From the NCBI GenBank assembly GCA_003134995.1, contig PLDC01000015.1:124001-188000 (forward strand): 64,000 nt of DNA, in the 5' to 3' direction. The translations under genes and the position numbers were made by a program. Shown in pieces: positions 18,101 to 34,609 of this stretch. This stretch comes from Acidobacteriaceae bacterium (GTDB taxonomy: Bacteria > Acidobacteriota > Terriglobia > Terriglobales > Acidobacteriaceae). Under the pieces are notes generated by a model. That model was not told the origin of the DNA. It saw nothing but the letters and a program-made list of their open reading frames with translations, and did not search any database. Positions within the stretch are counted from its first letter, which is position 1. Each line of letters opens with the position of its first letter.

Positions 18101-20486
18101 CCGTCGCCGGTTGACCTTGGTTCACCAGGCCGGAAGCGGCATAAAGCGTTCCAGGGTAAGCCGGATTGGTGCAATCCACTTCCTCATACACGGCGTCATA
18201 AAGACCGCCCTGCAATCCTGCTCCTTGAAAAATCGCGTGCTGAGAGAAGGCCTGGATCACCGTATCCCGGATCGTCATAAAGTTGCCGCTGCGATTGTTT
18301 ACTCCATTCGCGCAAGCCATCGTCAGATTCGATCCGCCGTCGATTGTCACAACCGCGCTGTTCGCGTTGTCTCCACGCGACCACACGCCCCACCCTACCC
18401 AGTTCGCGTCGTGTCGAATCTGCGCGCCGCCCTCCGTATCGAAGTGGTGAATCAGCGCCGCCTGGTCGTTGTCCACAACAATGTCGTTGTTGAACACCCC
18501 GGGATAACCATAGGAAGACATATCAATGTCTGCCATGGATGCGGCGTTGCTGTTGTCTTCAATCGCCGCTGCTTCAAGAGCCGCTGTCCCGAACGCAGTC
18601 GTCGCTCCAATATTCGTCGCGCTGGCAACCGAGAATGTAAATGTATTCGTCGTGGTCGAGGTGATCAGCCAGAAGCCGTGATAGGCGCCGTATGTCGGGA
18701 TCGAAACGTTGGTCGCGACATAATCTCCCGTCAGAAAAGGATGGCCTGCCGCAGTCATGGTCACCGCATTGCTCGCCACCGAAACTGATGTGACCTGCAC
18801 GCCATCAATATTTACTGCGGATGTGAACCGGAGCCCTTTCAGCTTTTGGCTCGAGAAATCACTCGCGAAAACACGATCTCCAATAAGCCAGCACACCGAT
18901 CGCGTGTGGCACTGCAACAGCGCCCCGTATCCCTCGACCGTCGAACGAAGATTCTGTTGGAAGATCGTGGCATAGACCTGATACGCATTCGTGTTCGCTC
19001 CAGTAGGCGGTATCACGATGAAAGCGTTCGGGCTTCCAGCGTCATTCAGCGCCTCTTGGATTCCCCCATAAGCACTCTGAATCGTGTTCGATGAGGCCGA
19101 ATGCGCCACCGTGGTAGTAACCCCAATCGTCCCGCTCACTGCCCCCGATGTACACGTCCCTCCCGTCACCAGTGCGGCTTCCGCATTCGTCGTCGGAATG
19201 TATACGTAGTAAGGCTGGGCGGAATTGTTGCTGGTATTAATTCCCAGTGGGCAAGGGGTCAACGTTATGGTTTGACCCGAGTTCGGAATCGCCAGATTCG
19301 CTGACACCGTCTGCGACCAGTTATCCGAAGGCGTTACGTATCGAACCCCGTTGAACGTGTTGGCGTTAAAGCTCGTGCCTACCGGTTGCGCAATATTCTG
19401 GTTCGATGGTGGACTGATCAATACTCCTCCCGTCCCACCCGCCGGAGTCGACGGCACATACTGCCCAGTCGCCGAAGAGTATGCCAGCACCTGTCCGTTC
19501 GTCGGCGCACCCGTGCCGACCGGCACACTCTGAATCTCTGTCGCATTGGCGCTCGAGCCGCAGGATCCCCACGTTCCGTTTCCCAGCAGGCAGTTCAATC
19601 CCGAAGCTGCTCCACTCCCTAACTCACTCGTTGGCACCAACCCGCTGATCAGGTCTGCCTTCAGCGCAATATTCGAATCGACGTATTGTTTGTCAGCCGC
19701 TTGCAGCGGCGCCGTCGGGGTTCCACTCAAAGTAAGCGCCCCCGTCATCGCCCCGCCGGCCGTCGGCAAGTAATTCCCCGCGCCCACATTAGCGATGGAA
19801 GTATCCACGTAGGATTTATTCGCCACGTCTCCCGTGTTCACCGGATTCGGAACATTCGGCGGCGTCGTGAAACTCTTGACGCCCGTCACCGTCTCCGCAT
19901 TGGCGAGATGCACCACTGCATTGTCATTCGCCTTCGCTGCCAGCGCCGTGTTCACGTATTGCATCGATACCGGCTGCGCCGCCGTCCCCGATCCCGGAGT
20001 AGTCCGCACCTGCGCCAGCGTCGCCGGAGAGCTAGTCGGCACCACCCAATATTCCGTTCGCACTTCGCTCGGTTGTAGCTGGTAGACCACGGTGTAGTAA
20101 GTGTTTGCCGGAGTCGCGTTCGCGTTCGGCGTCAGCGCCACATCCAGCGCCCCGTTCGTTCCCAGCGTCACATCCAACGACCCCGGAGCGACCGCCATCC
20201 CATCCGCTGCCACAAACGCTGGCCAGGTAATAATCAGCACGCCTTGAGCGGGACTTCCACTCGCCATGTAGACGGTATCAATCACGCTCGTCAACTCCGG
20301 CCCGCTCTGGGGGGCCGGCGAAGCCGCGCGCGCAGATGGACTTGCCGCGCCCGGCTTCGCCGTCGGGGAAGTTGCCGGCTTTCCCGTGGAAGCTTCTTCA
20401 CCAGCCCAAACTCGGACGCTCGCCGCCATCACCACCACTAGCACCCAATAAAAAAGCCGCCCTGTCGGGCGGCAAGCCTGAAACAT
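15195..20486 (-). CDS. Tail-fibre-like giant protein with a signal peptide
   Basis: 1763 aa. The N-terminus has Arg residues, a hydrophobic stretch (YWVLVVVMAASV) and VWA|GEE, a plausible signal peptide. Near residues 240-290 it has GAMTGALTLSGTPTAPLQ then ADKQYVDSNIA, and near the C-terminus GTPTAPTA, TTQVATTAFV, ADHVHPSDTSRAPLASP and a second GTPTAPTA copy. These units are typical of phage tail-fibre repeat proteins. A middle section (IQEALNDAGSPNAFIVIPP) suggests a beta-helix. TTAGGAGGA precedes the ATG. A terminator-like hairpin overlaps codons 5-13. Fibre repeats on a secreted protein are odd, and its cellular location is unknown. Confidence 0.7.
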   Translation of the reverse strand: MFQACRPTGRLFYWVLVVVMAASVRVWAGEEASTGKPATSPTAKPGAASPSARAASPAPQSGPELTSVIDTVYMASGSPAQGVLIITWPAFVAADGMAVAPGSLDVTLGTNGALDVALTPNANATPANTYYTVVYQLQPSEVRTEYWVVPTSSPATLAQVRTTPGSGTAAQPVSMQYVNTALAAKANDNAVVHLANAETVTGVKSFTTPPNVPNPVNTGDVANKSYVDTSIANVGAGNYLPTAGGAMTGALTLSGTPTAPLQAADKQYVDSNIALKADLISGLVPTSELGSGAASGLNCLLGNGTWGSCGSSANATEIQSVPVGTGAPTNGQVLAYSSATGQYVPSTPAGGTGGVLISPPSNQNIAQPVGTSFNANTFNGVRYVTPSDNWSQTVSANLAIPNSGQTITLTPCPLGINTSNNSAQPYYVYIPTTNAEAALVTGGTCTSGAVSGTIGVTTTVAHSASSNTIQSAYGGIQEALNDAGSPNAFIVIPPTGANTNAYQVYATIFQQNLRSTVEGYGALLQCHTRSVCWLIGDRVFASDFSSQKLKGLRFTSAVNIDGVQVTSVSVASNAVTMTAAGHPFLTGDYVATNVSIPTYGAYHGFWLITSTTTNTFTFSVASATNIGATTAFGTAALEAAAIEDNSNAASMADIDMSSYGYPGVFNNDIVVDNDQAALIHHFDTEGGAQIRHDANWVGWGVWSRGDNANSAVVTIDGGSNLTMACANGVNNRSGNFMTIRDTVIQAFSQHAIFQGAGLQGGLYDAVYEEVDCTNPAYPGTLYAASGLVNQGQPATARGGTYMVGQTPQFAFTGTSGSTLRNYYIVMHSSIGGVYAIPLFAGYAKTNGGAGTINVYWPEMPATNASVDGTITYDVLLGTSSTLVPVGTGTFALATAISGSCAAGICSFSDNQTAAASYTVGTNPTLIPQLDEWPGHIVLAPSSDATNTFALPQYFADALPANAGSVMVAAGNAQSFHAQSCTNQEFPSIAQQVCFPQNALQSAVITSGAPYPQGGGTTSILQGSLLFEGQPATPNHFITLHDSQQQKTLASTLRLAASASDVYIGTDDTGGNFRNLSFGAPQSISFYIGNTGDNASYLERLTAAMKTFNVPVTVNGNLTVTGSCTGCGGSGGGAGTVNSGSATQLALYAANGTAVSGDSGLTDSGTTLNYAGSNGITAAAGAFSGNVTVNGQLLVAGPWMVSSPIPGTPMAVAGAGTSALGISNDGNFYISASAGAPQKIATTASSSYFSNLFQEDGYDLGQFVVGETTANPQSLHVYSSYTNSSTWQRTSLGYDLADNYAVVRSENSTAGDAPGLGFWINNGLKWVVDASSNLKPWTDQTYNVGSFSGSAGTGLRPGTVYVAGNSGSGSGFELGKFASESYELCNDTTSGTIVNGLAVLTTAGCAAKPASALTSGAIGVVIANAGTSGVVTLAREGSAYCSFDGSATVVGDYVVASPTASSGFYPLCHDAGTTRPTGTQILGRVLQASAGSTTVQMFMDMPGSNVSSGTSAGTGSCTNQAVTAVLSGGPTCTTITSAYVDSSIAPAASPALTGTPTAPTATANTNTTQVATTAFVLGQASSTAPNMDGTAAVGTSNTFARADHVHPSDTSRAPLASPGLTGTPTAPTAATGDNSTKIATTAYVRSEIYLAWSCAVAGTTAVTQNCNWTVPAGIIVTGFDLAASTAAAGCTTYPVLQVWDGTAGAELGSYSTTFTSGTNFYTQVTGSAAVASGHQLRFKITTAAAGCTTNAAGVAATITYQMQN
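20449..20473 (-). terminator. Terminator-like hairpin inside the start of the fibre-like gene
   Basis: Minus strand: GCCGCCC-GACA-GGGCGGC followed by TTTTTTA. It has the form of a factor-independent terminator yet lies within codons 5-13 of the 1763-aa gene. It may end upstream transcription or attenuate this gene. Confidence 0.6.
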
Positions 20487-23449: not shown

Positions 23450-23567
23450 TGGCTGGCCATCCCTGAAAAACAAATTTGGGTTGTGTCCTTTCGGCAGGTT
23501 TGCGTGACTTGATCTGATCGAGGCTGCTAACGTCAGTCTTTCCTGTGCGAGCAGAGGAGGGCTGACG

Positions 23568-24065
23568 ATGGCAAACGGGCGGTCTGAGATTCCCCACGGC
23601 ATGAAGAGGATTTACCAGCGCTTTGCGGGTTGGCGGAGCGCTCACCCTGGGGTGCGCTTGCCGATCCCGTCGCGATTGTGGAAAGCGGCGGCGAAGGTGG
23701 CGCGCGAACACGGGGTTTGTCGCACCGCGCAGGTTCTGCGTTTGGAGTACGGCAAGCTGAAGCGCATCACAGAGTCAGGCCAGTTTCCTATCCAGTCCGA
23801 TTCCCGCAAGGGTCGCGCGATCCGCCGTTCGACGGCATCGCTGAGCGCTACGGCGGGGGTGCCACGCCCAAGGGCGAGCCGCGCTCGGGTTGCGGCTTCG
23901 CTGCCGTCCTTCCTGGAGGTAGTCGGATCATCGGCGATCACTGGGTCGGAGTGTGTGATCGAGCTGGAAGGACCGCAGGGCAAGATGCGGATTCAGTGGA
24001 AAGGGATGGGCGCGCCAGATCTAGCCGCCCTGGGCCGCGTGTTATTGGAGCCAGGAACCAGGTGA
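23568..24065 (+). CDS. tnpA: IS66 TnpA-like accessory protein
   Basis: A 165-aa basic protein; residues 12-60 (KRIYQRFAGWRSAHPGVRLP, then LWKAAAKVAREHGVCRTAQVLRLEY) read as a helix-turn-helix-like DNA-binding part, and the end (VIELEGPQGKMRIQWKGM) resembles the C-terminal tail common in IS66 first-ORF proteins. GAGGAGGG precedes the ATG. It is followed after four bases by tnpB. Assignment depends partly on position. In IS66 elements this protein and TnpB are required alongside TnpC for transposition. Confidence 0.75.
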   Translation: MANGRSEIPHGMKRIYQRFAGWRSAHPGVRLPIPSRLWKAAAKVAREHGVCRTAQVLRLEYGKLKRITESGQFPIQSDSRKGRAIRRSTASLSATAGVPRPRASRARVAASLPSFLEVVGSSAITGSECVIELEGPQGKMRIQWKGMGAPDLAALGRVLLEPGTR

Positions 24066-24069
24066 GGCG

Positions 24070-24423
24070 GTGATCCAGATTACGCCGCAGATGCGGATTC
24101 TGGTGGCGATCGAGGCCGTGGATGGACGCAAGGGCATCGACTCGCTGGCCCAGTTATGTCAGGAAAAACTGCAGGCCGATCCTTTCTCGGGCTGCCTGTT
24201 TGTGTTTCGCAGCCGGCGAGGAACATCGATCCGCATTCTGGTGTATGACGGGCAAGGATTCTGGCTGGCGCAGAAGCGGTTGTCCAAGGGACGTTTCGTG
24301 TGGTGGCCGAGTGGCAACCAACCCACGCGGGTGCTGGAAGCTCATCAGGCGCAGTTGCTGCTGGCCGCTGGGAACCCGGATGCGGTGGCCGCACCAGTAT
24401 GGCGGCGGGTGAGCGCGAAGTGA
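24070..24423 (+). CDS. tnpB: IS66 family accessory protein TnpB
   Basis: A 117-aa protein of the IS66 Orf2 family: residues 50-80 read GTSIRILVYDGQGFWLAQKR and LSKGRFVWWP, the family signature. It is GTG-initiated with GTGAGGCG ahead, four bases after tnpA. TnpB is essential for IS66 transposition but its biochemical role is unknown. No truncation is visible. Confidence 0.92.
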   Translation: MIQITPQMRILVAIEAVDGRKGIDSLAQLCQEKLQADPFSGCLFVFRSRRGTSIRILVYDGQGFWLAQKRLSKGRFVWWPSGNQPTRVLEAHQAQLLLAAGNPDAVAAPVWRRVSAK

Positions 24424-24430
24424 TCTTGAC

Positions 24431-25354
24431 TTGCGTTTTTCACTTGCGTTCCATTTTGTACTCTGCCACACTGCAGGTGTGCCTGCTCCGTGCCGATATC
24501 GTGGTCGAGAGATTCGCGCGGAAGATATCGTCTTCATCCGACAGCACATTGCGGAACATCCCGGAGTCAGTCGGCGGAGGCTCTCGCAGAAGCTATGCGA
24601 GGCTTGGCAGTGGAAGCAGGCCAACGGCGCGCTGTGCGACATGGTGTGCCGCGGTCTTCTCTTAAGGTTGCATCGGGCGGGCGAGATCGAGTTGCCGCCG
24701 GTTCGCTACACGCCGCCGAATCCTCTGGCGAAACGCCAACCGCCGCCGCCGCGGTTGATCGACATTACTCCGATCCGCGCTGCGCTCCGTCAGCTCCAGC
24801 CCATCGAGATTCAGCCGGTGCGGCGCACGCCCGAGGAAGCGTGGTTCAACAGCTTGATGGAACAGTATCACTATCTCGGTTATGAGCAGCCGGTGGGTGA
24901 GCACCTCAAGTATGTGGTGTGGGCGCACGGGCGGCCGATCGCGTGCCTGGCGTGGAGTTCGGCGCCGCGTCACTTGGGCAGCCGGGATCGCTTTATTGGC
25001 TGGAGTGCGGAAGCGCGGCGATGTAACCTTCGCTTCCTGGCCTACAACACGCGCTTTCTGATTCTGCCCTGGGTGGAGGTGCCGCATCTGGCTTCGCATT
25101 TGCTAGGTCGCATGGCGAAGCGGTTGTCGGAGGATTGGGAAGGCCTCTACCAACACCCCATCTATTTTCTGGAAACCTTCGTGGACCCGGAGCGGTTCCG
25201 CGGCACCTGTTACCGCGCTGCCAACTGGATTCTCTTAGGACTAACGACGGGGCGGGGCAAAGACGATCAGACCAATCGCCGGAATCGTTCGCTCAAGCAA
25301 GTGCTGGGATATCCGCTAACTCCGCGCTTTCGCGAGTTACTGCAGGAGACTTAG
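24431..25354 (+). CDS. DruA-like DUF4338 protein carried by the IS66 element
   Basis: A 307-aa protein. Residues 22-70 (YRGREIRAEDIVFIRQHIAE ... HPGVSRRRLSQKLCEAW) form a winged-helix-like N-terminal part; residues 125-290 hold the DUF4338 core: FNSLMEQYHYLGY, LAWSSAPRHLGSRDRFIGW, LRFLAYNTRFLILPWV, LETFVDPERFRGTCYRAANW and LGYPLTPRFRELL. This family includes DruA of the Druantia antiphage systems, and many members are transposon-borne. No other Druantia gene is nearby. TTG at 24431 or GTG at 24479 could be the start. Its stop abuts the tnpC ATG, so it is part of the element's operon. A role in transposition is likelier than defence, but untested. Confidence 0.82.
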   Translation: MRFSLAFHFVLCHTAGVPAPCRYRGREIRAEDIVFIRQHIAEHPGVSRRRLSQKLCEAWQWKQANGALCDMVCRGLLLRLHRAGEIELPPVRYTPPNPLAKRQPPPPRLIDITPIRAALRQLQPIEIQPVRRTPEEAWFNSLMEQYHYLGYEQPVGEHLKYVVWAHGRPIACLAWSSAPRHLGSRDRFIGWSAEARRCNLRFLAYNTRFLILPWVEVPHLASHLLGRMAKRLSEDWEGLYQHPIYFLETFVDPERFRGTCYRAANWILLGLTTGRGKDDQTNRRNRSLKQVLGYPLTPRFRELLQET

Positions 25355-26983
25355 ATGCAGCCGGCAGCGCCGCCTCTCGATGTTACTCCGGAAGAATTGG
25401 AGACGTTGCTGGAGGGCGTGCGCGAAGCACTGGGCGAGGCCGGATATCAGAAACTGAAAGCCGCGATCCGCACGCTGAGCTACGTAACCGAGCTATTGGA
25501 GAATCGCGAAGCGACCCTGCAGAGCCTGCGCCGATTGTTGTGCCGTGCGCGCAGCGAGAAGACCGAGGCGGTGCTGGAACAGGCAGGCATTCCGAGCAGT
25601 CCGACCCAGGGGAAACCGGAGACAAAAGAGACTGCGAAAAAGCCGGATATCGGCCACGGTCGTAATGGCGCCCAAGCGTATCACGGAGCGTGCCACGTCC
25701 AGGTTTCACACCTGTCGCTGCACCAAGGGGATCGATGCCCGGAGTGTCAGCGCGGGAAAGTCTATCCGCTGAAGGAGCCGGGACGACTGGTGCGGATGCG
25801 AGGTCAGGCGCCGATCGCCGCCACCGTGTACGAGTTGGAGAAGCTACGCTGCAATCTATGCGGAGAAGTGTTCACCGCCAACCCACCAAACGGAGTGGGC
25901 GAAGAGAAGTATGACGCGACGGCGGCCAGCATGATCGCGCTGCTCCGCTACGGCAGCGGATTTCCGTGGAATCGCCTGGCCGACCTGGAAGCGAGTTTGG
26001 GCATTCCGCTGCCCGTTGCGACGCAATGCGAGATCGTTGTGGAAGCGGCGGCTACGATGCAACCGGCGATGGAGGAGTTGATTCGCCAAGCGGCGCAAGG
26101 CGAAGTGCTGCACAACGACGACACCTCCATGCCCGTGCTGGCGCTGCGGAACGCAGGCTTGGACCATGACGAGGGCGACGCTGTCGAGCGCACGGGCGTG
26201 TTCACCAGCGGGATTGTCTCGACCGCGCAGAAACAAACCATCGCCCTATTTTTCACTGGACGCCAGCACGCGGGCGAGAACCTGGCCGACGTGCTCCAGC
26301 GGCGAGCTGCGGAACTGGCTCCGCCCCTGCAGATGTGCGACGCACTGTCGCGCAACCTGCCCAAGCTGCCGGAGAAGTTGCAAGTCATTGTGGGCTATTG
26401 TCTGGCACATGCTCGCCGGCGCTTTGTGGAGGTGACACCCAACTTCCCCGAGCCGTGTCGACACGTGCTGGAACAACTGGGCAAGATCTACGGCAACGAT
26501 GCTGTAGCGCGGGAACAAACCATGACGCCGGAAGAACGGTTGCGCTTTCACCAGCGGAAGAGCGCCTCGGTGATGGACCAACTGCATATCTGGCTTACCG
26601 CGCAGTTTGCGGAGAAGAAAGTGGAACCGAACTCCGGTCTGGGAGTGGCGATGCGGTATCTGCTCAAGCACTGGGAGCGGCTCACGCTGTTTCTGCGGCA
26701 GCCGGGAGCGCCGCTGGATAATAACATTTGCGAAAGAGCCTTGAAGAAAGCCATCCTGCACCGCAAGAACTCGCTGTTCTACAAGACCGAGAACGGAGCG
26801 CACGTCGGCGATCTGTTCATGAGCCTGATTCACACCTGCGAACTCTCGGACGCCAACCCCTTCGACTACCTAACCCAGTTGCAGCGGCATGCTGGCGAGT
26901 TAGCCCGCAATCCGTCGCAGTGGATGCCGTGGAACTACCCAGCCACGCTGGAAGCAGGCGGCGCCCGTCTCGACTCCAGTTAG
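25355..26983 (+). CDS. tnpC: IS66 family transposase TnpC
   Basis: A 542-aa DDE transposase. The N-terminal coiled coil/leucine-zipper part (residues 12-75) is followed by a zinc finger (CPECQRGK and CNLC near residues 128 and 168). The catalytic core shows LHNDDTSMPVL (Asp near 254), MCDALSRN (Asp near 328) and DNNICERALKKAILHRKNSL (Glu near 458). The C-terminal IS66 domain follows (LFMSLIHTCELSDANPFDYL). The gene appears intact and starts directly at the stop of the DruA-like gene. Activity is plausible. Confidence 0.95.
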   Translation: MQPAAPPLDVTPEELETLLEGVREALGEAGYQKLKAAIRTLSYVTELLENREATLQSLRRLLCRARSEKTEAVLEQAGIPSSPTQGKPETKETAKKPDIGHGRNGAQAYHGACHVQVSHLSLHQGDRCPECQRGKVYPLKEPGRLVRMRGQAPIAATVYELEKLRCNLCGEVFTANPPNGVGEEKYDATAASMIALLRYGSGFPWNRLADLEASLGIPLPVATQCEIVVEAAATMQPAMEELIRQAAQGEVLHNDDTSMPVLALRNAGLDHDEGDAVERTGVFTSGIVSTAQKQTIALFFTGRQHAGENLADVLQRRAAELAPPLQMCDALSRNLPKLPEKLQVIVGYCLAHARRRFVEVTPNFPEPCRHVLEQLGKIYGNDAVAREQTMTPEERLRFHQRKSASVMDQLHIWLTAQFAEKKVEPNSGLGVAMRYLLKHWERLTLFLRQPGAPLDNNICERALKKAILHRKNSLFYKTENGAHVGDLFMSLIHTCELSDANPFDYLTQLQRHAGELARNPSQWMPWNYPATLEAGGARLDSS

Positions 26984-27048
26984 AGTAAAATGATCCTCGC
27001 TCTGGCCGGAATCTCTCGATTCTGGCCAGGCGGGAAGGTCCCTGGAAA

Positions 27049-27711
27049 ATGCCCGCCAAACGGGCCTCTCTGCTCACCGAATCGCGCCGGGTTTTTGGCC
27101 AGGGGGCTGGCCGGAGGGAAACTCCGTTTCGCGCCGGCCTGTACGCGCGCGTGTCCACCCACGACCAGCAGACGCTGCCGATGCAAAGTCGTGCCCTGCG
27201 CGAGTACGCCGCACGGCGAAGTTGGACCGTCGTGATGCAGGTAAAAGAGGTTGGCTCCGGCGCGGCACAACGCGAAGCTCGCGAGAAACTGCTGGAAGCC
27301 GCGCGCCGCCGGGAGATCGACGCCGTGCTGGTGTGGCGGCTGGATCGCTGGGGACGCTCGGTCACCGACCTGCTCAGCACGTTGCAGGAACTGGAGCATC
27401 TGGGCGTCGGTTTCGTCTCGCTGACCGAAGCGCTGGACCTGACCACGCCCGCCGGTCGGGCCATGGCCGGACTGCTCGCCGTGTTTGCCGAGTTTGAGCG
27501 CGAGATCTTGCGTGAGCGGGTGCGCGCTGGTTTGGCTCATGCCCGGCAGAATGGCAAACGCCTGGGCCGGCCCATCACCGCCGCGTTGCATGCCGGTCAG
27601 GTCCGCCAACTACGCCGCTCCGGATTCAGCAAATCGGCCATCGCCCGCCGCCTGAACATTGGCCGCACCTCGGTGCGCCGTATCCTGGCAGCTCCGTCCG
27701 CACAGAAATAG
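27049..27711 (+). CDS. Small serine recombinase (resolvase/invertase family)
   Basis: A 220-aa protein with the catalytic-domain start LYARVSTHDQQT (nucleophile Ser near residue 37), VLVWRLDRWGRSVTDLL near 96, and EFEREILRERVRAGLAHAR near 145, all standard for resolvases and invertases, then a C-terminal helix-turn-helix (FSKSAIARRLNIGRTSVRRI). The N-terminal 30 residues precede the usual domain and may not be translated; an internal start is possible. It lies 65 bases after tnpC across a CTGGCC...GGCCAG palindrome (27001-27029) that could be part of its target site. It could resolve cointegrates or be unrelated to the IS66 element. Confidence 0.88.
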   Translation: MPAKRASLLTESRRVFGQGAGRRETPFRAGLYARVSTHDQQTLPMQSRALREYAARRSWTVVMQVKEVGSGAAQREAREKLLEAARRREIDAVLVWRLDRWGRSVTDLLSTLQELEHLGVGFVSLTEALDLTTPAGRAMAGLLAVFAEFEREILRERVRAGLAHARQNGKRLGRPITAALHAGQVRQLRRSGFSKSAIARRLNIGRTSVRRILAAPSAQK

Positions 27712-27810
27712 CTCCCCACTCCTTTACTTGTATTAGTTTGAACTCGACCTTGCGGACAGGGCTGGCAAGACTCCACGTATCGGACACAGACTGGTATCCA
27801 AATTGGGGGA

Positions 27811-27841
27811 TTTTGAGTGTAAAGGCGATTTTGCAACAGCT
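27811..27841 (+). repeat. GAGTGTAA-type degenerate repeat, copy A
   Basis: Contains TTTTGAGTGTAAAGGCGATT, then TTGCAACAGCT. Related copies lie at 29635, 31284 and 33029. It sits in the 309-base gap between the recombinase and the first GloVer gene; nothing else is recognised in that gap apart from the promoter-proximal region. Confidence 0.5.
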
Positions 27842-28020
27842 AGCATCAGCGGCTTTAGCGCTCTAGCCGAGGCACGAATCGAAGTTCCGTTTCGGTCGCT
27901 TGCTTGCAAGATTGTCCGGGTGTATGATCCCGGAACCCCCAAGTGAGGCGTGTTTTCGACGCCCCCCTAGTTTCGCGTCGAACGGTCAAGCCCCCAAAAT
28001 ATCTCGAAGGAGCTGTCCTA

Positions 28021-29486
28021 TGCACATCGCAAATCAAACCTCAAACCGGCTCTGCCGGGCAATATTCATCGCTTGTGTAACGGCTAGTGCGGCCTATGCG
28101 GCCAGCTCGGGCGAGAAGGTCCTTTACCAATTTCAAGGAGCTCCCGATGGAGCTGGACCTCAATCGAGCTTGATCGTCGACGCGAACCATCTGTTGTACG
28201 GCACAACGCCCTATGGGGGACAGGGGAAATGCGGCTCATCCGGATGCGGCACAGTTTTCGAACTCATCCCACCTGCGGCAGGCTCCAACAAGTGGACGGA
28301 GAAAGTTTTGTACAGCTTTCAAGGCGGAACTGACGGCGCGCTGCCTCAGGCAGGATTGGTACTCGACCAGAGTGGCAATCTCTACGGCACGACGGCATCG
28401 GGCGGCGGTAACAGCACCGCCTTAGGCTGCGCATTCGGCGAAATCGCCGGTTGCGGTACCGTATTTCGCCTGTCGCGGCCCACGACCAAGGGCGGCGCCT
28501 GGGCGGAGACTGTTCTTTACGCATTCCAGGGAAACCCGGACGGCTCCCAACCCATGGGAAGCCTGATCTTTGACGCCAAGGGGAATCTCTACGGCACCAC
28601 GGCTGAAGGCGGCGCCGGATATTGCGAAAATGGATATAACAACCCCTACGGCGGCTGTGGCTCTGTGTTCGAACTGTCGCCCCCGGTCAAGGGAAATGAT
28701 CCTTGGACGGAAGCCATTCTTTATGCCTTTAACGGTCTTGGAGGCGGCGACACGGACGGAGCAGTCCCGACGGGCGGTGTCATCTTCGACCAGAACGGAA
28801 ATCTCTACGGCACGACGTTAGCGGGCGGAGTGTCGTGCGGCGGCGGCGAGTTTTGTGGTGGAACCGTCTTCCAGTTAACGCCTCCAGCAGAGAAGGGCAA
28901 CCCCTGGACGGAAACGGAGCTGACAACTTTCTTCGGCGCCAAAGCAGGCGAAGGCGCAACCCTCCCTGGAGCAAGCCTGATTTTCGACAAGAAAGGCAAC
29001 CTCTACGGCACGACCCTGCTAGGAGGCAACGGAGCTTGCAACACCTATGAGGAAGAGGCGCTCCCGAGCTGCGGAACTATCTTCAGTCTAAGTCCGCCCA
29101 CGAATGGAGGAACCTGGACGCTGACCGCCATTTATAGCTTTAACGGCACCATTGACGGCGCCTACCCTGCCTACTACGGTTCAGCGAGTATGGCAATCGA
29201 CGGCAAGGGCAACCTCTACGGTACAACGCCTTCCGCCGGCGACCAGCCGGGTTGCAGTTTCCTTGGGCGCATTCCTGATCCCGGATGTGGCACGGTTTGG
29301 AAGTTGACGCCACCTTCCAGCAAAGGTGAGGCTTGGGCCGAAACTACGTTGCATACTTTTGCCGGCGCCAGTGACGGCGCAGTCGCTTTGGGCGGCGTGG
29401 TTTTCAAAGACGGAACTCTTTTCGGCACCACCACCGGCCTGGGAAGTTCCGCAAGCAGCGGAACGGTGTTCTCTATCGTCCCGTAA
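28021..29486 (+). CDS. Secreted GloVer-repeat protein 1
   Basis: About 488 aa. MHIANQTSNRLCRAIFIACV followed by AYA is a signal peptide. The mature part consists of repeats of the GloVer type (TIGR03803): DGxxPxxxL..D..GNLYGTT..GG....GTVF(E/R)L, about eight to nine copies, spaced 50-60 residues, predicted to form a beta-propeller-like fold. Extra Cys residues pair within several repeats (CGSSGCG). AAGGAG precedes the ATG at 28021 by eight bases; the longer in-frame upstream reading is not supported. The function is unknown; family members are secreted or surface proteins. Confidence 0.85.
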
Positions 29487-29634
29487 AGAATGGATTTTCG
29501 GTGCCCCGCTCTTGTGGCCCAATCGTGGCGATCCACAGCGCTCGCTCGCGCCCCGTGGACCGCCTCGGGTTAAACTACATAAGGTCAGCATAAGCCGCGA
29601 AAATGCAAACGGCCAAGGTCAATTGGCGCTAGCA

Positions 29635-29703
29635 GCGATTACATGTTTTGATTCCGAAACCGGGGAGCCCCGGTCAATGAGTGTAATGGCGATTTTTCGC
29701 CAG
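29635..29703 (+). repeat. GAGTGTAA-type degenerate repeat, copy B
   Basis: Contains GCGATTACATGTTTTGA, an internal CCGGGGAGCCCCGG hairpin, and TCAATGAGTGTAATGGCGAT. It shares GCGATTACAnGTTTTGA and GGTCAATGAGTGTAA with the copy at 33029. It lies in the 415-base gap between GloVer genes 1 and 2, which has no supportable gene. Confidence 0.6.
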
Positions 29704-29901
29704 ATTACGCAGAACAGGCTCCTGTGTGAATGAAACGTGAGGAAACTGATGCAGTTCCGGTGGTTTTTTCGCGTTGACTCCGAAAAGAGCTTCAGGGTAT
29801 ATTTTCTGCTCCTCCCCAGTGAGAGCACTTCTCACACCAGCATCTAGTTTGTATCCCGGGCTCCGCAAGACAAATAAAAATTAATGAGAGGATATTTCCC
29901 T

Positions 29902-31110
29902 ATGCGAAGCAAATTGTGTTCGAAACTGGCGGTAGGATTGGCAACTTTTGCCTTGGCATCGATGGCGATCAATACACGCGTGGCTGCACAGTCGGAGACG
30001 CCGGTGTACAACTTTGGCGCCACCAGCGCCGGTGCTCCTTACGGAGGCGTAATTTTTGACGCGGCCGGAAATCTTTATGGCACGACGACGGATGGAAATG
30101 GGGCGGTGTTTGAACTCACACCGGAATCCGGTGGATGGAACGAAACCGTGCTCTACACCTTCAGTGGAGGAACTGACGGCAACGATCCACAGGCCGGTCT
30201 GGTGATGGATGGCGCCGGCAATCTTTATGGAACAACGATGCAAGGTGGCGCCTACGGGTTCGGCACCGTCTTCGAATTGTCTCCGCTAAGCGGAGGCGGC
30301 TGGAGCGAGAGCATCATCCACAGCTTCGGCAACGGTACGGACGGACAGTCTCCGCAGGCAAGCCTGATTATTGATTCGAAGCAAAACCTCTACGGAACGG
30401 CGCCAACCGGCGGGAAATACGGGAAGGGTGTTGTGTTTGAGCTGTCCCCGAAAACAGGAGGGAGCTGGACAGAAAAGCTGCTGCATCAGTTCGGGAATGC
30501 GTCGGATGGGGCAAATCCCAATGGCGCGCTGATTTTTGATGCGTCGGGAAATCTGTATGGAACAGCCACACGCGGTGGTACCCACGCCGCTGGAATCGTA
30601 TTCGAACTGTTGCCTGCGGCGCACGGCATGTGGTCGGAGAAGACGCTGCATGTGTTCAATCTGGCAGGCGGCGGCCAAGCTCCTGCAAACGGAGTCATCC
30701 TTGATAGCCACGGGAACTTATATGGCACTGCGGGAGCCGGGAGCGCAGGTGCGGGCGTGGTATTCGAGTTGGTCCATCAAACAAGCGGTGTTTACAACGA
30801 GAAAGTTGTGCATACTTTCCTTCAGAACGGAATTGACGGCTACGGACCTCAGGGGCTCATCATTGACGCCTCCGGCAATTTGTACGGCACCACCTATGTC
30901 GGAGGAGCTTATGCCTTCGGCACCGCGTATGAGTTGTCGCCAACAGCGAAGGGGAATTTTTCCGAGACGATCTTGCACAGCTTCAACCTGTACGGAGACG
31001 GCGCGTATCCTTATGGCACGTTAGTTCGTGATTCGGCGGGGAACGTTTACGGCACAACGTACCAAGGCGGCACGAACGAGAACGGATTGGTGTTCGAGAT
31101 CACTCCGTAA
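29902..31110 (+). CDS. Secreted GloVer-repeat protein 2
   Basis: About 402 aa, starting MRSKLCSKLAVGLATFALAS with signal peptide ending AAQ. Seven or more GNLYGTT-GG-GxVFEL repeats follow without the Cys pairs of protein 1. GAGAGGA precedes the ATG at 29902, which is preferred to the ATG at 29884. A strong terminator follows (31137-31180). It is a paralogue of its neighbours: the same repeat unit (D..GNLYGTT..GG) appears with about 45-55 residue spacing. Likely a secreted or cell-surface protein of unknown role. Confidence 0.85.
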   Translation: MRSKLCSKLAVGLATFALASMAINTRVAAQSETPVYNFGATSAGAPYGGVIFDAAGNLYGTTTDGNGAVFELTPESGGWNETVLYTFSGGTDGNDPQAGLVMDGAGNLYGTTMQGGAYGFGTVFELSPLSGGGWSESIIHSFGNGTDGQSPQASLIIDSKQNLYGTAPTGGKYGKGVVFELSPKTGGSWTEKLLHQFGNASDGANPNGALIFDASGNLYGTATRGGTHAAGIVFELLPAAHGMWSEKTLHVFNLAGGGQAPANGVILDSHGNLYGTAGAGSAGAGVVFELVHQTSGVYNEKVVHTFLQNGIDGYGPQGLIIDASGNLYGTTYVGGAYAFGTAYELSPTAKGNFSETILHSFNLYGDGAYPYGTLVRDSAGNVYGTTYQGGTNENGLVFEITP

Positions 31111-31136
31111 GCACGATAGAAAAGAAAGATAGAAGA

Positions 31137-31180
31137 GGCCCTCACAAATCTTAGACTCAGGTGAGGGCCTTATTTCTTGT
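31137..31180 (+). terminator. Factor-independent terminator
   Basis: GGCCCTCAC (31137) pairs with GTGAGGGCC (31161) and is followed by TTATTTCTTGTT. It lies 27 bases after the second GloVer gene. Confidence 0.85.
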
Positions 31181-31237
31181 TGAGTATTCAACTAGATGTC
31201 GCCACGGGCAGGCGAGGCTCCAGATGGCTGTCGCTAT

Positions 31238-31272
31238 CAGGCCATAGCACAAGCTTGCGCCGTTTATTCGCC
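31238..31272 (+). repeat. 36-bp repeat, copy 1
   Basis: Contains CAGGCCATAGCACAAGCTTG and CGCCGTTTATTCGCC. It is repeated at 33443-33478 with only a few differences (TAGCACAAGC and GCGCCGTTT conserved). It lies in the gap between GloVer genes 2 and 3, just before copy C of the GAGTGTAA-type repeat. Confidence 0.7.
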
Positions 31273-31283
31273 TTTTTGCGGGC

Positions 31284-31311
31284 AAATGAGTGCAATGGGG
31301 ATTTTTCGTCA
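31284..31311 (+). repeat. GAGTGTAA-type degenerate repeat, copy C
   Basis: AAATGAGTGCAATGGGGATT followed by TTTCGTCA, a close relative of copy B (TGAGTGTAATGGCGATTTTT). Weaker than B and D. The interval 31312-31585 has nothing else I can support. Confidence 0.5.
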
Positions 31312-31585
31312 ATTGATGTCGGCTTCCGAGTAGCCGACGATCAACGAATTGGCGCAGTTTGCGGAGACAAGGCATTTATCGATATTGATCATCGCTGCAA
31401 GATACCCTTAACTTCAGGGGTTGCGCGTTGGTGAGAACCGAAAAACAGGTTGGCCCCTTCCTAAGACAGGTGTCAGCGATTTTTTCCTTAAGGAGTGGGA
31501 ACATTGTGGTATGTTTGCTGCCTCCCCTTGACGCCGTTTGGCGCGCCGGCGAATCCTGATTTGCTCTGAACCTCGGAGGTTCCTC

Positions 31586-32854
31586 ATGAAGCGACTAAAT
31601 CTCTCTCTCATCATGTTGGCCGTTTGCGCGATTGCGGCGATAGCGGTTGCGCTCCCCGTCCTCGCGCGGGCGCAAAGTTTGGAAACTGTCATCCACCATT
31701 TTCCCAGCGAGAGTGGTGACGGATCCGCACCGCTTGCCACTTTGTCTGCAGATAACACCGGTAACTTCTACGGAACGACAGATTTCGGCGGCGCCTACGG
31801 CGAGGGATCGGTGTTCGAGCTGACGCCTACCGCGACAGGCTGGAGCGAGAGCGTCATCTATAGCTTTGCCGGTGGGGCAACTGGTTCGTCTCCGGGCTAT
31901 ACGGGCGTCGCCGTTGACAAGAACGGAAATCTTTACGGCACAACCTACAGTGGCGGAACTGTGAACTCAGCGTGCAGCATCGGATGCGGGTTAGTGTACG
32001 AACTATCGCCCACCTCCAGCGGCTGGCAGGAAACTGTGCTCTACAACTTCACCGGCCCTGATGGCCAGTATCCGAATGAAGGTACCCTCGTCTTCGATGC
32101 CAGCGGCAATCTTTATGGTGTGACTGGAAATGGAGGGACGAGTGGTACCGGGGTGGTCTTCAAGCTCGCGCCTTCGGCCGGAACGTGGACGGAGAGCGTC
32201 ATCTACGATTTCCCGGATCACGTCGGTCTGGCAGTGAATCCCTGGTCCGTGAGCATGGACGCCAGCGGCAACCTTTATGGAGTCGCGGTGGGCGGCGGAA
32301 TGTATGGTTTCGGGACGATCTTCAAACTCACGCCCAACTCCTCCGGCGGTTGGACCGAGAGCAACATCTACTCATTCACCGGCGGTGCGGACAGCGGCTA
32401 CCCGCGCACAAATCTGATCTTTGATTCTGCTGGGAACATTTATGGCATGAGCTCCGGTAATCCGGGCGGTGCGGGATTCGGCGCGGTTTTCAAACTGTCG
32501 CCGGCTTTCGGAGGCGGCTTGAAGTTCAGCGTGCTTTACACCTTTACCGGGGTAACGGGCGGATTCAACCCTGGCTACCAATTGGCCATGGACGCGGCGG
32601 GGAATCTTTACGGGACAACATTCTATGGCGGTAACGCCAGCTACTGTGTCGGGAACGCCGGTTGCGGCGTGGTCTTTAAGCTGACGCCCAAAGGCAGCGC
32701 GTGGAAGGAAAGCGTGCTTCGCATCTTCACCGGTCGGACCGGCGGGAACTTTCCCAATGGTGTGATCTTCAACGCGGCTGGCACTGCTTTGCTGGGCACA
32801 ACGGCAGAAGGCGGCGCAGGGAAGGACGGCGTGGTGTTTGAAGTCGTCCCGTAA
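31586..32854 (+). CDS. Secreted GloVer-repeat protein 3
   Basis: 422 aa, starting MKRLNLSLIMLAVCAIAAIA with signal peptide ending ARAQ. GloVer-type repeats follow (GNLYGTT, GNIYGMS, GVVFKL); two contain Cys pairs (CSIGCG, CVGNAGCG). CGGAGG precedes the ATG. It is the third member of the tandem array. The first repeat has GNFYGTT, and later repeats end in FKL rather than FEL. No enzymatic motif is visible; a surface or secreted beta-propeller-like role is inferred from the family. Confidence 0.85.
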   Translation: MKRLNLSLIMLAVCAIAAIAVALPVLARAQSLETVIHHFPSESGDGSAPLATLSADNTGNFYGTTDFGGAYGEGSVFELTPTATGWSESVIYSFAGGATGSSPGYTGVAVDKNGNLYGTTYSGGTVNSACSIGCGLVYELSPTSSGWQETVLYNFTGPDGQYPNEGTLVFDASGNLYGVTGNGGTSGTGVVFKLAPSAGTWTESVIYDFPDHVGLAVNPWSVSMDASGNLYGVAVGGGMYGFGTIFKLTPNSSGGWTESNIYSFTGGADSGYPRTNLIFDSAGNIYGMSSGNPGGAGFGAVFKLSPAFGGGLKFSVLYTFTGVTGGFNPGYQLAMDAAGNLYGTTFYGGNASYCVGNAGCGVVFKLTPKGSAWKESVLRIFTGRTGGNFPNGVIFNAAGTALLGTTAEGGAGKDGVVFEVVP

Positions 32855-33028
32855 AGGTCGTTCTCATTTCGGGCGTTCCTGGTAGAGTGGACTCGCGGCG
32901 CGAGGATTTTGCGTCTTCAAGCACCCTCGCGGAAGTCGCGTGCATTGCGCTGCAGAACGTCGGAACCAATTATAGGACCTTAACTTTGGGAAATCCTAGT
33001 TCCCGCAGTTCTCAACTGTCGAGAACAG

Positions 33029-33085
33029 GCGATTACACGTTTTGACTGCGGGTCAATGAGTGTAACCGAGATGTTACGACAGCTA
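33029..33085 (+). repeat. GAGTGTAA-type degenerate repeat, copy D
   Basis: GCGATTACACGTTTTGACTG, then GGGTCAATGAGTGTAACCGA and TTACGACAGCT. It shares two separated blocks with copy B (29635), so B and D probably derive from one element. It slightly overlaps the end of the membrane-protein gene at 33083. Confidence 0.6.
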
Positions 33086-33400
33086 AGGCTTGTAAATACC
33101 TCTCAACCCGAACAGCAACATTGCAGCGCCTGAGAAAAATAAACAGGCTCCAATGATGCCAAATCGGATAGCTTTACCGGGTCGAGGGCTTTGAGGTAGC
33201 AAACTTCGTTGGAGGCGACGGAGTTGCATCCGCTTGCCAAGCGGCCAAAACAGCGGCTCGAACTTATCCGACTGCGGCAGTCGATCGTTCACTTCGGATT
33301 GTAGCTCCAGCCATTGCAGGCTACTTGCGATGAAGTGACCGATTCCTGTGGCCATCAAGGCAGCACCGACGACGATGGCAACGATAAACACAACCCACAA
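33083..33400 (-). CDS. Two-helix membrane protein of unknown function
   Basis: A 105-aa protein: a membrane segment at residues 2-24 (WVVFIVAIVVGAALMATGIG), a charged 50-residue middle, and a second segment at 80-100 (FGIIGACLFFSGAAMLLFGL). Probable inner-membrane protein. No family recognised. It is the only minus-strand gene in the 23.5-34.5 kb interval and stands alone. Its 3' end touches the degenerate repeat copy D. Confidence 0.55.
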   Translation of the reverse strand: MWVVFIVAIVVGAALMATGIGHFIASSLQWLELQSEVNDRLPQSDKFEPLFWPLGKRMQLRRLQRSLLPQSPRPGKAIRFGIIGACLFFSGAAMLLFGLRGIYKP

Positions 33401-33442
33401 TTTACGCCGAAGCTTTAGAGATTTCCAGATAGCTGCTGTTAA

Positions 33443-33478
33443 CAGGCGTTAGCACAAGCGTGCGCCGTTTGTTCGCCC
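33443..33478 (+). repeat. 36-bp repeat, copy 2
   Basis: CAGGCGTTAGCACAAGCGTG and CGCCGTTTGTTCGCCC; the partner of the copy at 31238-31272. It lies in the 400-base gap between the membrane protein and the repressor gene, which also holds the duplicated promoter at 33690. Confidence 0.7.
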
Positions 33479-33728
33479 TTCAGCCCAATTACGCTCAAAA
33501 CCCCCGCTACGGCCTGACGGTAGCGACCCCGTCCGACAGCGTGGCGTGCAAGGTCAAGTCGTGGCTATTACACCTTATTACTCAGTCTTGCCGAAAACTC
33601 ACTTTGGGTTATAGATTGTCGTGATCGTATAGCTGCTAAAAACCAGAGTGGTTGCCACGTCGAAAGGGCTGTGGAAAACTTTATTTTGTTTAGCGTATTG
33701 CTATAAGGCGCGTGCTAAACTCCCAGCT

Positions 33729-33779
33729 ATGAACTCCCGAGTACTGCAAGACACCCCCCCTGTTAGCGTATTGCTATAA
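33729..33779 (+). CDS. 16-residue upstream ORF from the duplicated start
   Basis: ATG at 33729 is the duplicated counterpart of the repressor start and reads MNSRVLQDTPPVSVLL before TAA at 33777. The first residues parallel the repressor N-terminus (MKFRVLQD). It may be an accidental by-product of the duplication or act as a decoy/leader ORF; it ends inside the second promoter copy. Confidence 0.35.
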   Translation: MNSRVLQDTPPVSVLL

Positions 33780-33788
33780 GCCGCATGC

Positions 33789-33794
33789 TATACT
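33789..33794 (+). promoter_or_regulatory. -10 element of the S24 repressor gene (leaderless)
   Basis: TGCTATACT at 33786-33794 is an extended -10. A start site six to seven bases on falls at or next to the ATG (33802), so the mRNA is probably leaderless; no Shine-Dalgarno sequence is present. The first copy carries TGCTAAACT at the equivalent place. Confidence 0.55.
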
Positions 33795-33801
33795 CCCAGC
33801 T

Positions 33802-34518
33802 ATGAAATTCCGAGTACTGCAAGACAACCTCCGCGAAACTCTTTGGGAGCGCATCGACGAAGGCGATCTGACCGGGCTCCGGCTGGCACAACAGACCGGA
33901 TTCAAGCAGGCTCACATCTCCAACTTCTTGAATCGCAAGCGCGGCTTGAGCCTCGAGGGCATGGACCGGGTCCTGGCGGTCCAGCACCTTTCAGTGCTGG
34001 ATCTGCTGGACCCAGCCGAGGTAAACAAGCGCGCTTCGATCATGCCTCCCAGCAATGACGAGTTCCAAAACGTCCTGTTGACCGACGGAACCGTCGCGGC
34101 CACCCAACCACTCATCACCAGCATGCACGTCAAAGAAATCCTGAAATTCAAGAAGAGCTTTCTGAAAAAACTGAAAGCCGAAACCGAAGGCGATCGTGAG
34201 CAGTGGGAGCGCTTCGTACTCATCAAGGTGGACGCCCGCGAAGGCATGAGCATGTACCCTCGCCTGCTGCCCGGGGCCACACTTCTCATCGACCGCCATT
34301 ACAACTCGCTAAAACCCTATCGCAAGGGCGAATTCAACATGTACGCTGTGCTCAAAAACGAAGATTGCACGGTGAAGTACGTCGAAATCGCTGGTAACCA
34401 TCTGATTCTGCGGCCTCACAACCAGGCCTACCCCATCGAAGTCGTGACTATGGAAGAAGGCAAGTCCGCCTCCGACTACCTGGTCGGCCGCGTCTGCCAT
34501 GTGGGAATTGAAACGTAA
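33802..34518 (+). CDS. XRE-type repressor with S24 peptidase-like domain
   Basis: A 238-aa protein. Residues 15-55 form a helix-turn-helix (GLRLAQQTGFKQAHISNFLN, then RKRGLSLEGMDRVL). The C-terminal part resembles the LexA/CI S24 fold: EGMSMYPRLLPGATLLIDRH near residue 150 holds the Ser and CTVKYVEIAGNHLILRPHN near 190 holds the Lys of the catalytic pair. Self-cleavage upon DNA damage is known for relatives; no obvious Ala-Gly cleavage site was singled out here. Its promoter is duplicated, and the gene may autoregulate through the repeats. It may be a prophage-type repressor without a prophage nearby. Confidence 0.85.
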   Translation: MKFRVLQDNLRETLWERIDEGDLTGLRLAQQTGFKQAHISNFLNRKRGLSLEGMDRVLAVQHLSVLDLLDPAEVNKRASIMPPSNDEFQNVLLTDGTVAATQPLITSMHVKEILKFKKSFLKKLKAETEGDREQWERFVLIKVDAREGMSMYPRLLPGATLLIDRHYNSLKPYRKGEFNMYAVLKNEDCTVKYVEIAGNHLILRPHNQAYPIEVVTMEEGKSASDYLVGRVCHVGIET

Positions 34519-34523
34519 CAAAC

Positions 34524-34609
34524 CAGTTCTCAGTTCTCGGTTCCCAGTTCTCAGCGAATGCCCTTGGGTTTTTACTGAGAACCGAGAACTGAGAACTGAA
34601 CTGAGAACT
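34524..34609. repeat. Iterated-word inverted repeat
   Basis: CCAGTTCTCAGTTCTCGGTT ... on one arm and GAACCGAGAACTGAGAACTG on the other, both built of repeated AGTTCTC/GAGAACT units around a short spacer. It lies between convergent genes and could fold into a long hairpin, possibly a bidirectional terminator. Confidence 0.7.

What the first reader, a model, noticed from the sequence alone, without database searches (positions are those of the whole stretch)
23568..27711. IS66 element carrying a DruA-like (DUF4338) gene between tnpB and tnpC
The DruA-family gene is set in the transposase operon: its stop codon adjoins the tnpC start and tnpB ends seven bases before it. DruA belongs to Druantia antiphage systems, yet no other Druantia gene is present. 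A plausible idea is that the family serves transposition, or protects the element, and was recruited to defence later. The element appears intact.
Basis: partly seen in the sequence, partly recalled or inferred. Interest (0 to 1): 0.75.

Follow-up and report, generated by a model that had tools for sequence, protein, structure and literature searches.

The report
Possible DNA-marking gene carried by transposons
A jumping gene in this bacterium carries, between its own transposition genes, a gene resembling the DNA-marking enzyme Mom of phage Mu; relatives of it sit beside or inside transposases of several families, so it probably helps transposons move or protects their DNA.

Summary
In detail: tnpA-tnpB-druA-tnpC-resolvase at 23568-27711, frames open. 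The element is larger than reported: terminal repeats at 23483 and 33602 with a perfect 8-bp duplication, so 10,120 bp with three GloVer-repeat passenger genes; three genus relatives checked have the empty site. The arrangement is not accidental. Of 80 named-genome relatives (ranked by druA similarity), 62 read tnpB-druA-tnpC and 75 have tnpC directly downstream, over 16 phyla. druA is under purifying selection like tnpB and tnpC. Of 55 loci found by druA alone in the window's phylum, 43 have a transposase fused or adjacent: IS66, ISAs1-type and Tn5-type (fused), other DDE types. The protein is a predicted Mom-like GNAT acyltransferase: phage Mu Mom is the best PDB match of the AlphaFold model (Z 14.5), profile-profile E about 1e-12, and the residue changed in the inactive Mom crystal aligns with S222 (S or T in 36 of 37). 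It is not a Druantia component: PADLOC models do not match it, and the defence-type DruAs compared lack the Mom-like residues. Most likely it acylates DNA during transposition; that substrate is inferred, not shown. Later recruitment to defence is weakly supported.

The parts
23475..23482 (.). left target-site duplication TTTGGGTT
   Evidence: identical to 33603-33610
23483..23507 (+). left terminal inverted repeat of the IS66-family element
   Evidence: 22 of 25 to the consensus made from relatives
23568..24065 (+). tnpA
   Evidence: no Pfam or NCBIfam hit; an HMM started from it matches the same position in relatives
24070..24423 (+). tnpB
   Evidence: PF05717 4.2e-28; NF033819 4.7e-27
24431..25354 (+). 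DruA-family (PF14236) gene: N-terminal HTH-like domain plus Mom-like GNAT domain (about residues 119-307); start could instead be GTG 24479
25355..26983 (+). tnpC, IS66 DDE transposase
   Evidence: PF03050 3.3e-48; NF033517 216 bits against cut-off 180
27049..27711 (+). serine resolvase
   Evidence: PF00239 7.4e-43; present at the same place in a subset of relatives
27900..29486 (+). passenger: GloVer tandem-repeat protein 1
   Evidence: TIGR03803 5e-44
29884..31110 (+). passenger: GloVer tandem-repeat protein 2
   Evidence: TIGR03803 3e-78
31538..32854 (+). passenger: GloVer tandem-repeat protein 3
   Evidence: TIGR03803 7e-58
33578..33602 (-). right terminal inverted repeat
   Evidence: 19 of 25 to the consensus; second-best site in the window
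33603..33610 (.). right target-site duplication TTTGGGTT

Best explanation
The gene is a dedicated, functional part of an IS66-subfamily transposon, not a Druantia remnant. Its product has a small HTH-like domain followed by a GNAT domain of the Mom type. The most likely mechanism is that the HTH domain, contact with the transposase, or (in the ISAs1-type and Tn5-type relatives) covalent fusion to the transposase brings the acyltransferase to transposon DNA, where it transfers an acyl-type group from an acyl-CoA-like donor to a base, perhaps adenine, as Mom does. The mark would protect the element's DNA or transposition intermediate from host nucleases, or set when and where the transposase acts, as Dam methylation does for Tn5 and IS10 (recalled). 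Shown here: anatomy, element ends, recurrence, co-inheritance, constraint, fusion to transposases, a predicted Mom-like fold and conserved Mom-type residues. Inferred: DNA as substrate, the chemistry, and the benefit.
For: Operon recurrence: 62 of 80 loci tnpB-druA-tnpC, 6 of 80 with tnpB-tnpA inverted beyond tnpC, 75 of 80 with tnpC directly downstream, 16 named phyla. Search by DruA alone in 396 genomes of the phylum: 55 loci read, 43 with a transposase fused or adjacent: 24 IS66, 9 ISAs1-type, 4 Tn5-type, 1 other DDE_Tnp_1 fused, 5 adjacent to other DDE types (Pfam over 46 of the proteins). Coupling to IS66 transposases appears to have happened more than once. Median dN/dS over 44 pairs: druA 0.32, tnpB 0.27, tnpC 0.37; druA-tnpC distance correlation 0.837, reached by 0 of 1000 permutations. 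Model pLDDT 90; Foldseek's best PDB match is Mom 8bv8, E 2.4e-7; VIA-align Z 14.5, 168 aligned, next 13.0. hhalign DruA against Mom: probability 95-98, E 1.8e-8 to 3e-13; against an alignment of 14 ordinary GNATs of this genome probability 26, E 7e-4; 30 column-shuffled Mom alignments at best probability 0.5. The Pfam Mom profile meets DruA loci in 3 of the 9 genomes it matches, out of 297, and matches 3 of 46 DruA proteins, best E 6e-4; the PHROG 'Mom-like DNA modification protein' matches one DruA relative of four proteins scanned. The inactive Mom crystal has Ala where S222 aligns; S222 is S/T in 36 of 37 and 76 of 77, Mom S114 is S/T in 14 of 14; H147, Y148, R208, G258, Y261, A263, N265 and G270 match conserved Mom residues.
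Against: The Mom profile does not match the window's own protein at E 1e-3 (G000 without a match), and 43 of 46 DruA proteins likewise; a single Mom sequence gives only probability 8, E 0.004 to the DruA profile. Two residues invariant in 14 Moms are not kept: E98 has no counterpart, and D139 corresponds to D252, which is D in only 18 of 37 (E in 10). A shared GNAT-type fold does not show a DNA substrate; most GNATs act on proteins or small molecules. DruA-less IS66 elements exist in the same phylum: 11 of 30 loci have tnpB beside tnpC without druA against 7 of 30 with it, and L253 and L258 lack it inside the druA-bearing TnpC clade, so it is not indispensable. The HTH domain has only weak structural support (best Z 5.0; no Foldseek E under 0.001). 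The 80 loci were ranked by druA similarity, which favours intact druA; some of the 55 phylum loci are near-copies of each other (e.g. L040 and L042, L059 and L061, L076-L078).
Confidence: 0.45

Rival explanations
1. The GNAT domain acylates a protein: the transposase itself or a host factor, thereby tuning transposition, with no DNA mark.
For: Most GNATs act on proteins or small molecules (established knowledge); operon position and fusions to transposases fit cis-modification of the transposase. A published analysis treats the DUF4338 GNAT of DndF as possibly acting on proteins (PMC10853773, passages seen).
Against: The nearest structure and profile is Mom, a DNA-modifying enzyme, not a protein acetyltransferase. 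No conserved substrate segment in TnpC was sought.
Confidence: 0.25
2. The gene protects element-bearing DNA or cells more generally: a Mom-like anti-restriction or anti-phage mark that benefits the element through host survival or transfer, not through transposition itself.
For: Mom of Mu gives resistance to restriction (recalled); related DruAs occur in a Druantia-like locus and next to NurA-HerA-type genes.
Against: Fusion into transposases of two or three families and position inside tnp operons point to transposition; the defence-type DruAs compared lack the Mom-like residues; the element's other genes are tnp genes, a resolvase and GloVer genes.
Confidence: 0.2
3. A passenger gene without role in the element, caught between tnpB and tnpC and kept by polar effects on tnpC.
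For: DruA-less IS66 elements exist, including two inside the same TnpC clade.
Against: 62 of 80 same order over 16 phyla, repeated couplings with other transposases, dN/dS close to that of tnpB and tnpC, conserved putative catalytic residues.
Confidence: 0.05
4. The domain is a catalytically dead GNAT used as a DNA- or transposase-binding scaffold.
For: D252 varies and Mom's E98 has no counterpart; the five defence proteins compared have lost the Mom-like residues.
Against: H147, R208 and S/T222 are retained in nearly all of the 37 diverse members, fusions included.
Confidence: 0.05

Closest known systems
Phage Mu Mom (PF25680; PDB 8bv8, deposited as 'Methylcarbamoylase mom')
   Same: GNAT-type fold, best of the PDB matches; H-Y, R, S/T, G..Y.A.N...G residues align; Mu is itself a transposing element (established knowledge)
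   Different: Extra N-terminal domain; Mom's E98 not kept and D139 not invariant; adjacent to or fused with DDE transposases; the Mom profile does not recognise the window protein
DruA of Druantia type I (PF14236, PADLOC PDLC00001/2)
   Same: Same Pfam family, profile-profile probability 98.6
   Different: PADLOC models do not match the window; of 46 non-defence phylum proteins at most 11 match one model, none better than 4e-7, against 1e-94 or better for five defence proteins; no DruE; five of five defence proteins lack the HY, NxR and S positions; separate clade 98/96
IS66-family insertion sequences
   Same: TnpB, TnpC, inverted repeats, 8-bp duplication
   Different: druA between tnpB and tnpC, a resolvase, three passenger genes, 10.1 kb; ends GTGTCC/GTGAGT rather than the GTAA I recall for classical IS66
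DUF4338-GNAT fused to DndF (PMC10853773)
   Same: Same domain, called a GNAT in print (passages seen)
   Different: Defence context; the text does not use the word Mom (0 occurrences), and the passages seen do not link this domain with transposases

Membership tests
IS66 family | IS66-type TnpC (DDE) and TnpB | tested here: met
IS66 family | terminal inverted repeats and 8-bp target duplication | tested here: met
   empty sites in relatives
IS66 family | tnpA upstream of tnpB | tested here: inconclusive
   an ORF at the right place, conserved in relatives, but no library match
Druantia type I | DruA recognised by PADLOC models | tested here: not met
   0 families for the window protein; the same models match the defence DruAs L034-L036, L048, L297 and, by the other model, L299
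Druantia type I | DruE helicase in the genome or neighbourhood | tested here: not met
   only two short matches elsewhere in the genome, E 1.5e-4 and 3.2e-4, of a model that rings in 12 of 14 control genomes
Druantia type I | DruB, DruC, DruD | not tested
   not searched one by one; the genes beside druA are tnp genes
Pfam DruA (PF14236) | profile match over the gathering score | tested here: met
   103.8 bits against 27
Mom (PF25680) | profile match over the gathering score | tested here: not met
   no match to the window protein; only weak or sub-cut-off matches to some other DruA proteins
Mom (PF25680) | Mom-type fold | tested here: met
   best PDB match by Foldseek and by VIA-align of the predicted model
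Mom (PF25680) | conserved residues including the Ser whose change inactivates Mom | tested here: inconclusive
   H, Y, R, S/T, G, Y, A, N, G kept; E98 and D139 not strictly
Mom (PF25680) | modifies adenine in DNA | not testable with these tools
   needs nucleoside mass spectrometry
GNAT superfamily | GNAT fold | tested here: met
   Foldseek 213 matches at E up to 0.001; the 50 listed are Mom or acetyltransferase-type entries

The most novel reading that the evidence does not exclude
Transposons of several unrelated DDE families carry their own DNA-hypermodifying enzyme, in operon or fused to the transposase, that chemically marks transposon or target DNA as part of the transposition reaction: a self-marking class of transposons. 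The Druantia component DruA would be a derived branch that lost the active site.
Probability: 0.3. Interest if true: 0.9.

Novelty: new variant of a known kind. Interest (0 to 1): 0.74.

Why it matters
A Mom-like enzyme built into transposition operons and fused to transposases would mean that simple transposons may mark DNA chemically, a step so far tied to phages and to restriction-modification (recalled). It also changes how the 'Druantia anti-phage system protein DruA' annotation should be read: in the phylum sampled, 43 of 55 DruA-family loci have a transposase fused or adjacent; four of the 55 match the PADLOC DruA models strongly (E 1e-94 or better), while of the 46 others scanned at most 11 match, none better than 4e-7. 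And it gives Druantia, whose mechanism I recall as unsolved, a testable ancestry. The key claim can be tested by nucleoside mass spectrometry and a transposition assay with an S222A mutant.

Tried and rejected
Considered and rejected: (1) that the gene is a leftover of a Druantia system: no PADLOC match, no DruE. (2) That the element ends just outside tnpA and the resolvase: no right repeat above the shuffle level between 27650 and 28400 (best 14 of 25; shuffles average 14.2 and reach 16); the right end is at 33602. (3) The end-pairing script on the window slice (which stops at 33000) paired the left end with a false right end inside the resolvase gene, without a duplication; superseded. (4) An ordinary GNAT: comparison with 14 GNATs of the same genome gave probability 26, E 7e-4. 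The first version of that control translated several loci on the wrong strand and is not used, except for its shuffles and the single-Mom row.

Led nowhere or weak: no PDB relative by sequence; N-terminal domain search weak; five defence DruAs against Mom gave probability 2, inconclusive with five rows; the plasmid collection holds two records with a match to the window protein at E 1e-5. Target duplications in relatives: 108 druA ORFs over 300 bits (window included), 51 with both repeat candidates (window slice included), 6 with an 8 of 8 duplication; the others lack one, many on short contigs. Eight of 55 phylum loci have no assigned neighbour, and two further match rows on one contig (G196:C242) were not fetched; the first look scored at most five candidates in genomes with many, so the 57 matches are a lower bound.

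Literature: no paper in the open library holds both DUF4338 and IS66; three hold DUF4338, passages read in all three. Of nine papers holding DruA, Druantia and transposase I read passages in four and saw five as listings only. Searches were seen as listings, apart from passages of PMC7824862. Nothing seen reports DruA with transposases or with Mom. Subscription papers and ISfinder could not be searched.
Full report
WHAT IS THERE. The window holds tnpA-tnpB-druA-tnpC-resolvase on the + strand, all frames open. druA (24431-25354) is a solid PF14236 match (1.2e-29). Its stop abuts the tnpC start, and seven bases separate tnpB from the TTG at 24431. The start codon is not certain: residues 1-17 are of low confidence in the model and the close relative L060 begins at the position of GTG 24479.

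THE ELEMENT IS 10.1 KB. Inverted-repeat candidates in relatives gave a terminal consensus. In the window the two best sites, and the only ones with at least 17 of 25 matches, are 23483-23507 (+, 22 of 25) and 33578-33602 (-, 19 of 25); both are flanked by TTTGGGTT, 8 of 8, with chance about 2e-5 for one pair. The element is therefore 23483-33602, 10,120 bp. Between resolvase and right end lie three GloVer tandem-repeat protein genes (TIGR03803). Relatives with the resolvase and no room for such passengers span about 4.0-4.1 kb (L090, L097, L098). Perfect 8-bp duplications also flank six relatives (L111, L120, L143, L145, L149, L166), of 51 with both repeat candidates, of 108 druA ORFs examined. 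In three genus relatives checked (G409, G398, G406; 31 genomes were searched, own genome included) left and right flank lie within 77 to 118 bases of each other with no element between. The element is single copy in its genome.

IS THE ARRANGEMENT REAL BIOLOGY. Of these 80, 62 read tnpB-druA-tnpC, 6 read druA-tnpC with tnpB-tnpA inverted beyond tnpC, 5 have druA-tnpC without a detected tnpB, 2 have tnpC but too little upstream sequence, 3 end too soon after druA, 1 has tnpB but no detected tnpC, and 1 has neither. So 75 of 80 have tnpC directly downstream. 77 of the 80 could be placed, in 16 phyla; many are metagenome-assembled genomes, so single placements are unsure. The set was ranked by druA similarity and cannot tell how often druA is lost. 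In the window's phylum (Acidobacteriota, inferred because contig C53 of G148 has the length and gene positions of the named record of L103), 35 of 199 genomes have an IS66 TnpC match; the 30 loci given (one a genome, the window's included) were read: 7 carry druA before tnpC, 11 have tnpB next to tnpC without druA, 2 have inverted tnpB, 10 are fragments or lack flank. On a TnpC tree (42 rows, short search without bootstrap) one clade holds 29 druA-bearing and 2 druA-less rows (L253, L258), while L054 and L055/L056 are druA-bearing outside it: five changes against 9.2 for shuffled labels. druA is therefore a stable but not indispensable member of one IS66 subfamily, and appears to have joined IS66 more than once.

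CONSTRAINT. For 57 loci with tnpB, druA and tnpC each covered to 85% in one open frame, median dN/dS over 44 usable (non-independent) pairs is 0.32 for druA, 0.27 for tnpB and 0.37 for tnpC; druA-tnpC distances correlate at 0.837 (0 of 1000 permutations as high, the best permutation being 0.758).

NOT ONLY IS66. A search of 396 genomes of the phylum with the DruA profile alone gave 57 matches in 31 genomes, a lower bound. Neighbourhoods of 55 loci were read (54 fetched, plus the window); two match rows on one further contig were not fetched. Tally: 24 next to IS66 tnpC (one decayed, L065); 9 fused, or apparently once fused and now broken, with ISAs1-type transposases; 4 with Tn5-type transposases (one broken); 1 fused to another DDE_Tnp_1 transposase; 5 directly beside other DDE transposases (DDE_5 as in IS701 in L046, DUF772 as in IS1182 in L038, DDE_Tnp_1 in L049, L053 and, broken, L079); 4 of the defence type (L034, L035, L036, L048); 8 unassigned. 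That is 43 of 55 with a transposase; some are near-copies of each other. (The names IS701 and IS1182 for those Pfam domains are recalled.) A Pfam scan of 46 of these proteins finds DruA in 46, the ISAs1-type domain PF13808 in 6 and the Tn5-type domain PF14706 in 4. A named public record shows the same: a Thiodictyon plasmid protein annotated 'ISAs1 family transposase' carries the DruA domain.

WHAT THE PROTEIN IS. AlphaFold2 on the window protein with 76 relatives gives pLDDT 90. The best PDB match by Foldseek is phage Mu Mom, 8bv8, E 2.4e-7; by VIA-align it is again Mom, Z 14.5, rmsd 4.0, 168 residues, the next being Z 13.0. Profile-profile comparison with 14 Mom proteins gives probability 95.4 (E 1.8e-8) or, with a more diverse DruA set, 97.5 (E 6.9e-12). 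Controls: an alignment of 14 ordinary GNATs of the same genome gives probability 26, E 7e-4; 30 column-shuffled Mom alignments give at best probability 0.5. Independently, the Pfam Mom profile run over 297 genomes matched nine, and in three of them (two of the loci near-identical) the match is a DruA locus, below the curated cut-off; it matches 3 of 46 DruA proteins in a direct scan, best E 6e-4; and a PHROG called Mom-like DNA modification protein matches a DruA relative in a viral contig (E 1.5e-4, one of four proteins scanned). The Mom crystal is the inactive S124A mutant; its sequence carries Ala at residue 114 of the 231-residue protein. DruA S222 aligns with that Ser and is S or T in 36 of 37 diverse and 76 of 77 mostly close members; in Mom it is S or T in 14 of 14. 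H147-Y148, R208, G258, Y261, A263, N265 and G270 correspond to conserved Mom residues. Against: Mom's invariant E98 has no counterpart, D252 (Mom D139) is D in 18 and E in 10 of 37, and the Mom profile does not match the window protein itself. The N-terminal domain is predicted as three helices with HTH-like matches, but weakly (best Z 5.0).

RELATION TO DRUANTIA. PADLOC druA models match L034, L035, L036, L048 and the plasmid loci L297 and L299, annotated 'Druantia anti-phage system protein DruA', at E 1e-94 or better. They do not match the window protein; of 46 non-defence proteins of the phylum set, the window included, 11 match one model and 6 the other, none better than 4e-7. L297 lies before two hypothetical genes and a large helicase, the Druantia layout (layout recalled). 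L034 lies before NurA- and HerA-type genes. In the five defence proteins aligned, the HY, NxR and Ser positions, as hhalign maps them, are replaced in 5 of 5. On a Mom-rooted tree of 50 GNAT-domain rows the defence proteins form one clade (98/96) inside the transposon-linked radiation (87/77 and 90/68 for the joins), with a warning about long branches and with partial sequences. So the transposon form may be the older and the defence form derived, but this is not settled.

MECHANISM. Established here: a constrained component that travels with, and in relatives is repeatedly fused to, DDE transposases and has a Mom-like set of conserved residues. Inferred: that it acylates a DNA base. The fusions suggest that it acts where the transposase acts. 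A mark on transposon or target DNA could protect it from restriction, as Mom protects Mu (recalled), or regulate the transposase, as Dam methylation regulates Tn5 and IS10 (recalled). The chief rival is acylation of the transposase or a host protein.

NOVELTY. That DUF4338 is a GNAT domain is in print (PMC10853773, passages seen); that text does not use the word Mom. Phage proteins with DruA-like structure are in print (PMC12774648, passages seen). I found no report of the transposase association or the Mom link in the open library (mostly seen as listings), which lacks most subscription papers. I rate it a new variant of a known kind, with a real chance of more.

Noticed in passing
window 27900-32854: Three GloVer-repeat (TIGR03803) protein genes are passengers inside the IS66-type element, between the resolvase and the right end.
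   Followed up: partly
L101, L107, L116, L117, L136, L154: A layout variant of the element: druA-tnpC on one strand and tnpB-tnpA inverted beyond tnpC (6 of 80 loci).
   Followed up: partly
window 27049-27711; L060, L088-L092, L097, L098, L112, L114, L135: A serine resolvase recurs after tnpC in a subset of the elements, which hints at cointegrate formation and resolution, unusual for a simple insertion sequence.
   Followed up: no
L034, L036: PADLOC-type DruA genes directly before large genes; in L034 these match NurA and HerA-type domains, a possible defence layout different from Druantia type I.
   Followed up: no
L173-L187: Viral contigs carry DruA-type GNAT domains at about 27-32% identity to the window protein; their neighbourhoods were not read.
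   Followed up: no
L168, L169: One 42.7-kb IMG/VR contig has a druA of the IS66 type near each end (71% identity), possibly two elements flanking a segment.
   Followed up: no
window about 34520-34609: A repeat of about 80-90 bases, with matches on both strands, occurs many times in this genome and in genus relatives; it looks like a dispersed palindromic repeat.
   Followed up: no
window 33690-33759 and 33763-33832: Tandem duplication of 70 bases at 90% identity just right of the element; the empty-site relative G409 appears to have a single copy.
   Followed up: no
window 8170-14724 and 15195-20486, minus strand: Two very long open frames (2184 and 1763 codons) left of the element, not examined.
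   Followed up: no
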